Source of the DNA: Leifsonia sp. PS1209
Lineage (GTDB): Bacteria > Actinomycetota > Actinomycetes > Actinomycetales > Microbacteriaceae
Length of the DNA stretch: 64,000 bases
Reading direction: 5' to 3'
Assembly: GCF_012317045.1 (NCBI RefSeq)
Contig: NZ_CP051154.1
Span: 3,844,001 to 3,908,000 of the forward strand
Below are positions 93-3,016 of the stretch, in pieces; position 1 is the stretch's first letter; each line of letters starts with the position of its first letter. The position numbers and the translations under genes are program-made. The notes under the pieces were generated by a model. It was not told the DNA's origin. It ran no database searches and saw only the letters and a program-made list of their open reading frames with translations.

Positions 93-2282
93 TCATCTCC
101 CGGCGCCGCTCCCCTCGGGCGTGGTGAGCACGACCAGCTGCTGCGTCGCGCGCGTCATCGCCACATAGTGGTCGACCGCCCCCTCGATCCCCGTCCCGAA
201 CGTCTCTGGATCGAGCAGCACGACGAGGTCGAACTCGAGGCCCTTCGACAGCTCGGGCGTCAGATACCGGATGCGCGGGGACGGCGCGAACAGGCCGGCG
301 CCGTCGCGGCCCGCCCCGATCACGCAGGCGATGCCCTCGCCCTCCTCGTGGTCGGCGAGCCACGCATCCAGGATCGGCTGCAGCTCTGTCGCCGGCGCGT
401 GGGTCACCGGCAGGCCGCTGCTCCGGATGGAGGTGGGCACGTTCGCGTCGGGCAGCACCGCCCGGATGACCGGCTCGGCCTCCGCCATGACCTCCTCCGG
501 GGTGCGGTAGTTGATGGTGAGCGAGGCCAGCTCGGCGTGCGGCAGGCCGATCCTGCCGAGGCGTTCCTGCCAGGTCTCCGTGAAGCCGTGCCTGGCCTGG
601 GCGCGGTCACCGACGATCGTGAAGCTGCGGGACGGGCAGCGGAGGAGCAGCATCCCCCATTCGGCGTCGGACAGCTCCTGCGCCTCGTCGACGATGATGT
701 GCGCGAATGGCCCGGCCAGCAGGTCGGGGTCGACGCTCGGCAGCGCCGCCTCGTCGATGAGACTGTTCTGCGCATCCGGTCTGCGCAGCATCGACATCAC
801 CAGCATCTCGGAGTCGTCTGCGGCGATCAGGTCGTCGATGACTTTCGCCATCTGCTCCCGCTCCGCCGCGAGGGTGGCGGCGCGGCGGCGGGCGCGCTTG
901 GACGCCTCCGGGTCGCCGATGCGCCGCCGGGCCGCATCCAGGTAGGGGAGGTCAGAGACGGTCCAGGCCCGCGCATTCCTCCGGTGCAGCAGCTCCGCCT
1001 GCTCCGGCCTCAGCCACGGCGCGCACACCCGCAGGTATGCGGGCACCGACCAGAGGTCGCCGACGACGCCGACCGGGTCGAGCACGGGCCACGCGCGCGC
1101 GAACGTGCGGGTCAGCTCCTCGTTCTGCAACAGCGCCCTGCGCACCTGATGCGGGGGAACCTCCTCGTCGTCGAACCCGTCGGTGAGGATGTCGAGCAGT
1201 GCCTCCCAGACCTGGTCGCGCGCCTCGTTGTGCGGCGTGCCGGGGTCGGGCGCGTCGAACGCCTCCGCCCACTCCGCGGGGCTCAGCCGGAGATCCATCC
1301 AGGGCGTCTCGACCGTCAGGGCTGTGGAGGGGGGAACCTCGTAATACCGGACGGCCGCCTCCACCGCATCCAGCAGCGCGCCGGACGACTTCAGCGCAGC
1401 CACCCGCCGGTCGGCCTCCTCCTGCGCGTCTGCGCCTTCGGCGACGAGGTCACGGAGGGTGCAGATCTGCACGCTCTCCTCGCCGAGACCGGGCAGCACG
1501 TCGTCGACGTACGCGAGATAGCCCTGGCTCGGCCCGACGAACAGCACGCCGTCGTCGCCGCGCGAGATGCGCGGGTCGGAGTAGAGCAGGTAGGCGGCAC
1601 GGTGCAGCGCGACGACGGTCTTGCCCGTTCCCGGCCCGCCGTCGACCACCAGCGGCCCCCGCGAGCCCGCCCGGATGATCGCATCCTGGTCGGACTGGAT
1701 GGTGCTCAGCACGTCGCGCATCCTGGGCGAGCGGCTGCTGCCGAGGCTGGCGATGAAGGCGGACTGGTCGTCGAGCGCCGCCGCGTCCTGCAGGCCGTCC
1801 TCGGTGAAGACCTCGTCCCAGTAGTCGCTGACCCTGCCGCGCGTCCACCGGTAGCGCCGACGGCTGACGAGCCCCTGGGGATGCGCGTGCGTCGCCGCGA
1901 AGAACGGCTCGGCCGCCGGCGCCCTCCAGTCGATGAGCAGCCGCTTGCCGTCGCGATCGGACAGGCTGAGGCGCCCGATGTAGACGGGTTCCGAGCCGTC
2001 GTCGGCCACGATCCTGCCGAGGCACAGGTCCAGGGTGAAGCGGCGCAGCGCACGCAGCCGGGCGGTCAGCCGGTGCACCTCGATATCGCGGTCGAGGGCG
2101 GCCTGCCCTTCGCCGACGGGCGCCAGCCGCTCCTCGGCGAGCCGCCGTTCCAGCTCGGCGATCTGCTCGTCGAGGCTCGTGGCGATGGCGGCGAACTGTT
2201 CCTCGTCGCGCGCGATCAGGTGGGCGTCCCGCTTGGCAGCGAGTCGCTCGGGCAGGGCGAAGGCAGAGGGGGAGAGAGTCAC
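93..2282 (-). CDS. helR: HelR/HelD-like RNA polymerase-interacting motor ATPase
   Basis: A UvrD/Rep-like superfamily 1 ATPase of 729 residues. HelR-type proteins bind RNA polymerase, displace rifamycin and recycle stalled enzyme. Visible: a charged N-terminal helical arm (residues ~5-75) as in HelD-family proteins, Walker A GGPGTGKT near residue 215, Walker B VDEAQE near 529, the VGDRAQ motif, and a C-terminal YVAMTRATQQ motif VI. I chose the GTG at 2282 because an upstream in-frame TTG at 2321 lies inside the palindromic regulatory element. There is no clear Shine-Dalgarno, and a CAGAAT box ends 8 bases before the GTG, suggesting a near-leaderless message. The rifamycin-associated palindrome just upstream supports HelR over a generic helicase. 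Confidence 0.85.
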   Translation of the reverse strand: MTLSPSAFALPERLAAKRDAHLIARDEEQFAAIATSLDEQIAELERRLAEERLAPVGEGQAALDRDIEVHRLTARLRALRRFTLDLCLGRIVADDGSEPVYIGRLSLSDRDGKRLLIDWRAPAAEPFFAATHAHPQGLVSRRRYRWTRGRVSDYWDEVFTEDGLQDAAALDDQSAFIASLGSSRSPRMRDVLSTIQSDQDAIIRAGSRGPLVVDGGPGTGKTVVALHRAAYLLYSDPRISRGDDGVLFVGPSQGYLAYVDDVLPGLGEESVQICTLRDLVAEGADAQEEADRRVAALKSSGALLDAVEAAVRYYEVPPSTALTVETPWMDLRLSPAEWAEAFDAPDPGTPHNEARDQVWEALLDILTDGFDDEEVPPHQVRRALLQNEELTRTFARAWPVLDPVGVVGDLWSVPAYLRVCAPWLRPEQAELLHRRNARAWTVSDLPYLDAARRRIGDPEASKRARRRAATLAAEREQMAKVIDDLIAADDSEMLVMSMLRRPDAQNSLIDEAALPSVDPDLLAGPFAHIIVDEAQELSDAEWGMLLLRCPSRSFTIVGDRAQARHGFTETWQERLGRIGLPHAELASLTINYRTPEEVMAEAEPVIRAVLPDANVPTSIRSSGLPVTHAPATELQPILDAWLADHEEGEGIACVIGAGRDGAGLFAPSPRIRYLTPELSKGLEFDLVVLLDPETFGTGIEGAVDHYVAMTRATQQLVVLTTPEGSGAGR

Positions 2283-2290
2283 GATGGACG

Positions 2291-2321
2291 ATTCTGCGCC
2301 CGACAGGGGGTCTTGCGGCAA
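2291..2321 (-). promoter_or_regulatory. Predicted promoter of the HelR gene
   Basis: On the minus strand TTGCCG (complement of 2316-2321) and CAGAAT (complement of 2291-2296) are 19 bp apart. The expected start point is at about 2284, two bases before the GTG start codon. The -35 box lies in the core of the rifamycin-associated palindrome. The long spacer suggests a weak or activated promoter. Prediction from sequence only. Confidence 0.4.
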
Positions 2322-2327
2322 GCCCCC
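2306..2327. promoter_or_regulatory. Rifamycin-associated element (RAE)
   Basis: A near-perfect palindrome: GGGGG, T, CTTGC, G, GCAAG, CCCCC. This matches the rifamycin-associated element, a roughly 19-bp G-run/CTTGC-GCAAG/C-run palindrome known upstream of rifamycin-inducible resistance genes in actinobacteria. It lies 24 bp upstream of the chosen HelR start. Its core (2313-2321) carries candidate -35 boxes in both directions. Confidence 0.8.
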
Positions 2328-2341
2328 TGGTGTGCTATATA
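2313..2341 (+). promoter_or_regulatory. Predicted opposing promoter inside the RAE
   Basis: TTGCGG (2313-2318), a 17-bp spacer and TATATA (2336-2341) make a better match to the housekeeping consensus than the HelR promoter on the other strand. No plus-strand gene follows: an intrinsic terminator starts about 4 bases after the predicted start point. The two opposed -35 boxes share the RAE core. Confidence 0.4.
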
Positions 2342-2351
2342 TTAGAAGTGG

Positions 2352-2383
2352 CGGAGGGAGTTTTCCCTCCGTTTTCGTTTGTT
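2352..2383 (+). terminator. Intrinsic terminator, plus orientation
   Basis: A perfect 8-bp stem (CGGAGGGA 2352-2359, TCCCTCCG 2364-2371) with a GTTT loop is followed by TTTTCGTTTGTT. Read on the minus strand there is no T-tract, so it should act only on plus-strand transcripts. No plus-strand gene lies upstream, so it would stop antisense transcription of the HelR gene or the short transcript predicted from the RAE. Confidence 0.7.
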
Positions 2384-2392
2384 AAGGGGCGG

Positions 2393-3016
2393 CTAGTCGG
2401 CCGGTCGCCACGGCTCGTCCGCGTGAGCGAGCCACACCTCCCGCGGGTGCAGCGACAGGATGAGCCGCTGCCCCTCGGTGCTGGGTTCGTCGAGCTCCCC
2501 GAACCACACGGCGGTGTCGCCGGCGATCACGATCGGCCTCTCGCCCGTCTCGATCACGACGATCTGGGATCCGCGGGTGTGGCCGGGAGCGGGCAGCAGC
2601 CGGACTCCCGCCACCAGCTCGTACTCGCCGTCCACGGCCGTGTACTGCACGCCGGGGGCGTCCACCCAGTCCGGGATCGTGTAATCGTCCAGCGTGCGGG
2701 CATCCTCGAGCTCCTGCCGCTGCACGTAGATCGGCCGACCGGCGAACAGGTGGTTGCCTCCGCAGTGGTCGAAATGCAGGTGGGTGTTGACCACCGCGGT
2801 GATGCTCTCGAGGTCCAGCTCGTCGTGCCGGTCGAGAGCATCGAGGCGCGGGTCCATGTCGGCCACCGCGGGGTGCAGCTGCGTCAGCCCGGTGTCGACC
2901 AGGATCCGCCCATCCGGATGGTCGATGAGATGCACGTAGACCGGCAGCCGCTCGTCCTCCCCGACGAGGAGACCAGCGACGCGGATGGGCGTGACGGCGA
3001 CCGGATCAAGAGACAT
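2393..3016 (-). CDS. Metallo-beta-lactamase-fold hydrolase, AHL-lactonase-like
   Basis: A 207-residue MBL-fold enzyme. The zinc motif HTHLHFDHCGGN lies near residues 77-88, then APGHTRGSQ and IAGDTAVW supply later metal ligands. Overall it resembles the N-acyl homoserine lactone lactonase (AttM/AiiA) branch, so quorum-signal lactone hydrolysis is plausible but other lactones are possible. No signal peptide: cytoplasmic. The ATG at 3016 starts the conserved region; the frame stays open upstream. A TACAGT box ends 6 bases before this ATG, which fits leaderless transcription better than a ribosome-binding site. It lies upstream of the HelR gene on the same strand, separated by the RAE region. 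Confidence 0.7.
   Translation of the reverse strand: MSLDPVAVTPIRVAGLLVGEDERLPVYVHLIDHPDGRILVDTGLTQLHPAVADMDPRLDALDRHDELDLESITAVVNTHLHFDHCGGNHLFAGRPIYVQRQELEDARTLDDYTIPDWVDAPGVQYTAVDGEYELVAGVRLLPAPGHTRGSQIVVIETGERPIVIAGDTAVWFGELDEPSTEGQRLILSLHPREVWLAHADEPWRPAD

What the first reader, a model, noticed from the sequence alone, without database searches (positions are those of the whole stretch)
2291..2383. HelR gene controlled by a rifamycin-associated element that holds two face-to-face promoters and an immediate terminator
The palindrome at 2306-2327 matches the actinobacterial rifamycin-associated element. Its core TTGC-G-GCAA gives a -35 box in each direction: minus TTGCCG with a 19-bp spacer to CAGAAT, driving the near-leaderless HelR gene, and plus TTGCGG with an ideal 17-bp spacer to TATATA. 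The plus promoter leads nowhere: an intrinsic terminator starts about 4 bases after its predicted start point. A strong dead-end promoter opposing a weak resistance-gene promoter could act as a polymerase-occupancy sensor, where a drug that blocks early elongation shifts the balance between the two. The palindrome, boxes and terminator are seen; the RAE link is established knowledge; the sensing model is inference.
Basis: partly seen in the sequence, partly recalled or inferred. Interest (0 to 1): 0.8.

Follow-up and report, generated by a model that had tools for sequence, protein, structure and literature searches.

The report
Back-to-back promoter switch for rifamycin resistance
The DNA element in front of many rifamycin-resistance genes looks, from its conserved sequence, like two promoters set back to back, one reading the resistance gene and a stronger-looking one reading only a tiny dead-end RNA, which suggests a way in which RNA polymerase itself could sense the drug.

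Summary
The palindrome before HelR matches the rifamycin-associated element (RAE). In 72 non-redundant HelR-linked RAE sites, a TAnnnT box lies exactly 19 bp from the -35 that faces away from the gene in 70, and an nAnnnT box exactly 19 bp from the gene-facing -35 in 72. Over all 194 unique pattern-fetched sites 177 have both, against 11 of 38,800 random anchors. The outward -10 begins with T; the gene-side -10 does so in 4 of 229. In 91 of 229 dual sites a hairpin starts within 2 nt of the predicted outward start; predicted RNA about 32 nt. Rox, Rgt, Rph and Arr genes, including arr in Stenotrophomonas, show the same layout.

Mutual exclusion alone cannot induce, so a further step is needed: I propose a polymerase held by the dead-end loop; a drug-responsive protein is the main rival. 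No transcription was measured here.

The parts
96..2282 (-). HelR coding region, 729 aa, GTG start at 2282 (stop codon at 93-95)
   Evidence: NCBIfam NF041254 motor_HelR 1204.1 bits, cut-off 750; start placed by the GTG kept in relatives
2291..2296 (-). gene-side -10 box CAGAAT, 19-bp spacer
   Evidence: nAnnnT at exactly 19 bp in 72 of 72 HelR-linked sites
2316..2321 (-). gene-side -35 box TTGCCG
   Evidence: core kept in relatives
2307..2327 (.). RAE palindrome
   Evidence: only match in window, 0.01 expected
2313..2318 (+). outward -35 box TTGCGG, overlapping the gene-side -35 by 3 bp
   Evidence: core kept in relatives
   Evidence: TAnnnT at exactly 19 bp in 70 of 72 HelR-linked sites, 0 at 17 bp
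2350..2381 (+). predicted dead-end RNA of about 32 nt, predicted start G2350
   Evidence: +1 is G in 219 of 229 dual sites; fold -16.8 kcal/mol, z -4.04; not measured
2351..2380 (+). terminator hairpin (stem 2351-2359 with 2364-2372) and T-rich tail to 2380
2393..3016 (-). upstream neighbour, metallo-beta-lactamase-fold hydrolase; not part of the element
   Evidence: best NCBIfam match AHLLactAiiA E 2.9e-31, below its cut-off; no homologue found upstream in L003, which keeps the element

Best explanation
The RAE before HelR is a pair of overlapping promoters set back to back on one palindromic -35 core, each with a 19-bp spacer (shown by conservation; promoter activity inferred). The gene-side promoter has the poorer -10 (C at -12). 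The outward promoter has the better -10 and a predicted product of about 32 nt that is little more than a terminator hairpin. The two can hardly be occupied together (inference from overlap). Proposed working: without drug, polymerase is mostly taken by the outward promoter, terminates within about 32 nt, stays on the DNA and restarts there, so that a captive polymerase keeps the gene-side promoter shut. Rifamycin-bound polymerase cannot go past 2-3 nt, so the loop breaks, the arrested enzyme leaves or is removed by HelD-type proteins, and free polymerase reaches the gene-side promoter. Polymerase would then be its own drug sensor. Everything after the architecture is inference.
For: Exact 19/19 spacing: 70 and 72 of 72, 177 of 194 unique sites, 37 of 46 loci chosen by HelR protein and not by the element, 25 of 30 mycobacterial pattern loci, the other 5 without boxes or a recognised resistance gene; 11 of 38,800 random anchors. 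Asymmetry: gene-side -12 is C 199, G 24, T 4, A 2 of 229, while the outward -12 is T in 70 of 72 sites not selected for it. Outward product: hairpin score 7 or more in 91 of 229, starting at predicted +1 in 86 of 91, at least 4 T in the next 8 nt in 64 of 91; TTTT after in 47 of 91, AAAA before (tract of the opposite direction) in 3 of 91. Same layout before Rox, Rgt, Rph and Arr and in two Stenotrophomonas isolates, where L169 has a stem followed by a T run; so the layout persists outside Actinobacteria. E. coli polymerase usually stays on DNA after intrinsic termination and can restart nearby in either direction (abstracts of PMC6978380, PMC7957599, PMC6978322). A toy model with such recycling can induce: maximum 53.7-fold at recycling 0.99.
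Against: No start site, RNA or drug response was measured. Most dual sites lack a clear terminator: 138 of 229 have no hairpin of score 7 or more at the start, and 27% of 70 pass the strict terminator score. With nearest relatives as donors the hairpin covariation shrinks (75 versus mean 40.9, maximum 50, at score 8 or more) and the mean score (5.56) is within the swapped range (maximum 5.63). The toy model needs very high recycling: with 2% of polymerase drug-bound the maximum is 1.2-fold at r 0.9 and 3.0-fold at 0.99, so sensitivity to low drug is poorly explained; the large maxima are at zero bulk drug-bound enzyme and 60% hits per round. Recycling is shown in E. coli, not in Actinobacteria. 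In Bacillus, bringing the two promoters close enough to clash abolished induction (PMC12802891 section 48). The 2022 review reports two sense starts for M. smegmatis helD and mentions no outward start in the passages I saw. 9 of 46 HelR-selected loci lack the full layout.
Confidence: 0.4

Rival explanations
1. The palindrome is the operator of an unknown rifamycin-responsive protein that opens or chooses between the two promoters; the outward promoter and terminator only set the basal state or shield the neighbour.
For: This is the published guess (PMC12802891 and PMC10719064 passages). Arms outside the -35 boxes are conserved; positions 10-13 are equal on both sides in 13 of 229 sites against mean 4.8, maximum 10 in 200 swaps.
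Against: In six of the 46 HelR-selected loci one arm is G-rich instead of C-rich while both boxes stay at 19 bp when present. The layout is kept in Stenotrophomonas and a Xanthomonadaceae MAG, which would need the same protein. A symmetric operator does not explain a better -10 on the non-gene side. No such protein was found in the papers seen; I made no search for one.
Confidence: 0.3
2. Plain occupancy competition: drug shifts the balance between two mutually exclusive promoters.
For: The -35 boxes overlap and the -10 boxes differ in quality.
Against: If drug-bound polymerase binds like free polymerase, relative gene-side output is (1-f)(1+K)/(1+(1-f)K+fK'), never above 1; scans give a maximum of 1.00 (with r=0).
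Confidence: 0.05
3. The outward RNA acts itself, for example as a short regulator of polymerase or of the gene-side mRNA, and drug removes it.
For: Its start and hairpin are conserved; a Northern-detected antisense RNA of about 90 nt falls with drug at B. subtilis helD (PMC12802891 section 45).
Against: Stem sequences vary with compensating changes and hairpins are not found in 138 of 229 sites; no known RNA family matches.
Confidence: 0.1
4. The conserved outward box is really the upstream sense promoter (P1) reported for M. smegmatis helD, or an AT-rich aid to the gene-side promoter.
For: The 2022 review places a second sense start about 20 bp upstream of the RAE; TATATA reads the same on both strands.
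Against: The box ends in T on the outward strand at a fixed 19 bp and is asymmetric in relatives (TACGTT, TAAGTT, TATCCT). A sense start 20 bp upstream of the RAE would need its -10 further out, in the hairpin arm. T tracts lie on the outward side.
Confidence: 0.1
5. The outward promoter is a by-product of the palindrome or serves a divergent neighbour gene.
For: A coding-like divergent gene starts nearby in 46 of 218 classified sites, and 8 more have both kinds called.
Against: 164 of 218 have no such gene, yet the box is kept in 70 of 72 HelR-linked sites; a by-product would not keep a -10 nearer consensus than the useful one.
Confidence: 0.05

Closest known systems
Rifamycin-associated element (RAE) of Actinobacteria (original papers not read; seen through passages of PMC10719064, PMC12802891, PMC8655204)
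   Same: Palindrome of about 19 bp upstream of HelR, Rox, Rgt, Rph or Arr genes, overlapping the -35 of the gene promoter.
   Different: Published accounts seen here describe it as a palindrome possibly bound by an unknown protein; the outward promoter, the 19/19 spacing and the dead-end hairpin are not described in the passages seen.
B. subtilis helD and pps dual-promoter rifampicin alarm (PMC12802891)
   Same: Weak sense and strong antisense promoter, short terminated antisense RNA, helD-type gene; the two B. subtilis antisense promoters also have 19-bp spacers.
   Different: There the promoters converge and are separated (39 bp between starts); here they diverge with overlapping -35 boxes, so collision cannot be the mechanism. 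The paper states that actinobacterial helD genes use the RAE instead.
M. smegmatis rpoBC two-promoter response to rifampicin (described in PMC10719064 passage)
   Same: Drug changes the balance of two promoters of one gene.
   Different: Tandem promoters in the same direction.
Bidirectional bacterial promoters from -10 symmetry (recalled, no call)
   Same: One DNA element with starts in both directions.
   Different: There the -10 is shared; here the -35 is shared and the -10 boxes are separate and unequal.

Membership tests
Rifamycin-associated element | Palindrome GGGNCTTGCNGCAAGNCCC-like | tested here: met
   exact match at 2307-2327
Rifamycin-associated element | Lies directly upstream of a rifamycin-resistance gene | tested here: met
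   HelR 729 aa above NCBIfam cut-off
Rifamycin-associated element | Required for induction by rifamycin | not testable with these tools
   needs an experiment; reported for M. abscessus in the review passage
HelR (class II HelD) | Match to the HelR family model above cut-off | tested here: met
   NF041254 1204.1 bits, cut-off 750
HelR (class II HelD) | PCh loop that displaces rifamycin from polymerase | not tested
   no structure was predicted
Dual-promoter rifampicin alarm (B. subtilis helD/pps type) | Two opposed promoters upstream of the gene | tested here: met
   by sequence conservation only
Dual-promoter rifampicin alarm (B. subtilis helD/pps type) | Promoters convergent and separated | tested here: not met
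   divergent with overlapping -35 boxes; the paper's search asked for 45-100 bp between promoters
Dual-promoter rifampicin alarm (B. subtilis helD/pps type) | Antisense promoter stronger and faster to clear | tested here: inconclusive
   -10 sequences point that way; no kinetics
Dual-promoter rifampicin alarm (B. subtilis helD/pps type) | Antisense RNA ends at a nearby intrinsic terminator | tested here: met
   in this window; in relatives only in part of the sites

The most novel reading that the evidence does not exclude
Across Actinobacteria and some other bacteria, rifamycin-resistance genes are switched by a captive-polymerase loop: RNA polymerase cycles on a promoter whose whole transcript is its own terminator and so holds a back-to-back resistance promoter shut; a drug hit on that polymerase opens it. 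No dedicated regulator protein is needed.
Probability: 0.2. Interest if true: 0.92.

Novelty: new variant of a known kind. Interest (0 to 1): 0.8.

Why it matters
How the RAE works was still called unresolved in January 2026 (PMC12802891 Discussion passage). Reading it as two back-to-back promoters with exact 19/19 spacing and a dead-end product makes that question directly testable with purified polymerase and small-RNA mapping. If true, Firmicutes and Actinobacteria would use polymerase as its own drug sensor with two different geometries. A promoter whose transcript is almost only its terminator would also be an unusual transcription unit.

Tried and rejected
Plain occupancy as the sensor: rejected by algebra and scans. 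TATATA at 17 bp as the conserved box: TAnnnT at 17 bp in 0 of 72. Terminator belonging to the upstream gene: T tract on the far side (47 of 91 versus 3 of 91) and presence not tied to gene context (14 of 46 divergent, 22 of 80 upstream gene ending there, 21 of 84 neither, 2 of 8 both). A viral link: three RAE-pattern matches in viral contigs, 0 of 3 with the dual boxes. A second palindrome just after the gene-side -10 in some sites: arms of 6 or more in 24 of 229, against 11 in one shuffled set, too weak; my first test of it demanded a gapless centre and was unsuitable. Known RNA family: no Rfam match in 2150-2550. Published start-site tables: supplements were not open to me.

Limits of the counts. 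Duplicates dropped: 74 to 72 HelR-linked sites, 196 to 194 sites; two more dropped for short flanks (70). The 229-site set was selected for having both boxes, so its -10 columns are fixed by construction; its gene-side -12 and its +1 are not. In one search, 11 loci labelled non-actinobacterial gave 3 dual, 2 one-sided, 6 none; the 183 others gave 174 dual, 7 one-sided, 2 none, but those 183 still held five non-actinobacterial loci whose titles I saw only (L184, L189, L219 dual; L192 one-sided; L205 none). A motif score put HelR on the outward side in 2 of 194 sites. The reversed-pattern control columns were not summed. In one search, 56 of 299 genomes matched and only the loci of the first 30 rows were used; L252 and L269 are the same places as L138 and L031. 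The HelR-selected set of 46 includes the window's own locus. One search aligned only a cut piece of L003 and cannot show where similarity ends; one search does.

Full report
What is there. The window lies in a 4.09-Mb single-contig genome. The family is Microbacteriaceae by inference: genome G572, listed as same family, has a contig of the same length as a record of Diaminobutyricibacter (now Leifsonia) tongyongensis. Minus strand 96-2282 encodes HelR (NF041254, 1204.1 bits, cut-off 750). Upstream lies an exact match to an RAE-like palindrome, 2307-2327. On the minus strand TTGCCG-19 bp-CAGAAT leads to a GTG start 8 nt after the -10. On the plus strand TTGCGG-19 bp-TATATT leads to a predicted start at 2350, where a hairpin with a T-rich tail begins. 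The two -35 boxes overlap by three bases, so the promoters diverge.

Is it more than chance? They gave 196 sites, 194 unique. In the 72 non-redundant sites next to a HelR-like gene, the outward side has TAnnnT at spacer 19 in 70 and in at most 1 at any other spacer from 13 to 24. The gene side has nAnnnT at 19 in 72, and at 21 and 22 in 3 and 11, shifted readings of the same box. Of 194 unique sites 177 have both boxes at 19/19; other spacer pairs give 0-2, except 29 and 31 for 19/21 and 19/22, the shifted readings. Random anchors in the same loci give 11 of 38,800.

Free of the pattern. Loci chosen by HelR protein in the genus and family gave 46 upstream regions, the window's own included; 37 are dual at 19/19 around a core TTGnnnCAA. 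Nine are not: L263 has the outward box without its first T, L272 lacks the core by one base, and L012, L013, L015, L265, L268, L273 and L276 have no such core in the 420 bases searched. In six of the 46 (L006, L009, L014, L017, L018, L277) one arm is G-rich rather than C-rich while both boxes keep their spacing. A mycobacterial sample fetched with a looser pattern gave 25 dual of 30; the other five show neither box and no recognised resistance gene.

Direction and end of the outward transcript. In 229 unique dual sites the predicted +1 is G in 219. A stem of score 7 or more beginning at +1 to +3 occurs in 91; it begins at +1 in 86 of these, has at least 4 T in the next 8 nt in 64, and gives a median predicted RNA of 32 nt (26-46). 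Own 3' halves pair better than swapped ones: 75 versus mean 18.7, maximum 27, at score 8 or more. With nearest relatives as donors the excess shrinks to 75 versus mean 40.9, maximum 50, and the mean score no longer stands out (5.56, swapped maximum 5.63). TTTT follows the hairpin in 47 of 91; AAAA precedes it in 3. The strict terminator score is passed by 27% of 70 sites outward, none on the opposite strand, 1% on the gene side and 3% of 700 shuffles. So the terminator is clear in a minority, while the promoter box is nearly universal. Terminator presence does not follow the neighbour gene. Window and L003 share one block, 2283-2394, 93% identical, covering promoters and terminator; beyond it no significant match is found and L003 has no homologue of the window's upstream gene there.

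Which genes and organisms. Of 106 non-HelR sites with a called gene, 52 match rifampin monooxygenase, 16 Rgt and 14 Rph models at E 1e-20 or better (proteins cut at 320 residues, so I claim family resemblance, not cut-offs; not every called gene need be the regulated one). Eight short proteins scanned for it are Arr above cut-off (L169, L184, L204; L192, L109, L147, L126, L216). Outside Actinobacteria the dual layout is present in two Stenotrophomonas maltophilia records (L169 before arr; in L165 the stretch ends before the gene), an uncultured Xanthomonadaceae MAG before arr (L184) and three Chloroflexi MAGs before rph-like or monooxygenase-like genes (L171, L189, L219); MAG contigs may be misbinned. 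In L169 the outward stem GGGAGGCGC/GCGCCTCC runs into a T tract. L192, an alphaproteobacterium with arr, has the core without the full 19/19 boxes. Seven other non-actinobacterial loci (L111, L117, L125, L129, L142, L157, L205) have neither layout, and L139 and L162 show one box, consistent with chance matches to the pattern.

Strength. The -35 boxes are nearly the same by symmetry. The outward -10 begins TA; the gene-side -10 begins with C in 199, G in 24, T in 4 and A in 2 of 229. On general knowledge of the -10 element this makes the gene-side promoter the weaker one; strength was not measured.

Mechanism. Rifampicin blocks RNA beyond 2-3 nt (PMC12802891 passage). A Rox homologue, the helD helicase and Arr genes are among the most induced genes in M. 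smegmatis after 20 min of drug (PMC6529629 passage); whether each has an RAE was not tested here. Two promoters with overlapping -35 boxes can hardly be occupied together. If drug-bound enzyme binds like free enzyme, gene-side output relative to no drug is (1-f)(1+K)/(1+(1-f)K+fK'), never above 1. So exclusion alone cannot be the sensor. In Bacillus, induction needs separated convergent promoters and was lost when they were brought close (PMC12802891 section 48). What the RAE adds is a terminator about 32 nt from the start. E. coli polymerase mostly stays on DNA after intrinsic termination and can restart nearby in either orientation (abstracts). If it restarts at the outward promoter with probability r, it can hold the element for many rounds, and a drug hit breaks the loop. 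The toy model then gives maxima of 1.5, 5.8, 11 and 54-fold at r 0.5, 0.9, 0.95 and 0.99, but these are at no bulk drug-bound enzyme and 60% hits per round. With equal drug-bound fraction and hit rate, 2% gives at most 3.0-fold and 10% at most 10.7-fold at r 0.99, and 1.2 and 1.9-fold at r 0.9. The model is therefore possible but demanding. A drug-responsive protein on the palindrome is the main rival, helped by weak symmetry of the outer arms.

Relation to print. Searches for the element, HelR, and related promoter terms listed no paper that, in what I saw of it, describes an outward promoter at the RAE. The library holds open-licence papers and no preprints; the original RAE and HelR papers were not read (one look-up failed). 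Papers seen: PMC12802891 abstract, passages and sections 37, 45, 47, 48; PMC10719064, PMC8655204, PMC6529629, PMC11077062 and PMC13246000 passages; PMC11464796 a term search without hits; PMC6978380, PMC7957599 and PMC6978322 abstracts; others as search listings only.

Verdict. I hold the dual-promoter architecture very likely (about 0.9), outward transcription likely (about 0.8), a role in rifamycin sensing plausible, and the captive-loop version speculative (about 0.2).

Noticed in passing
L268, L273 (upstream of HelR): A TATCCTGGA-like outward box seems kept although no TTGnnnCAA core was found; possibly decayed or altered elements.
   Followed up: no
L276, L012, L013, L015, L265: HelR-like genes with no such core upstream; how they are controlled is open.
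   Followed up: no
L192:4947-5357: Alphaproteobacterial record with arr behind an RAE-like core whose boxes are not at 19/19.
   Followed up: partly
gene-side leaders of some sites, e.g. L049, L067: Inverted repeat of the type CTGGCC-GA-GGCCAG just after the gene-side -10; weak over the whole set (24 of 229 with arms of 6 or more, 11 in one shuffled set).
   Followed up: partly
G000:C1:3186815-3189037 (L002): A second HelR/HelD-like gene in the same genome, 38% identical, with one TAG inside the match; the only place in this genome with the RAE pattern is the one in the window.
   Followed up: no
window 2393-3016: Metallo-beta-lactamase-fold, lactonase-like gene directly upstream, not shared with L003.
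   Followed up: partly
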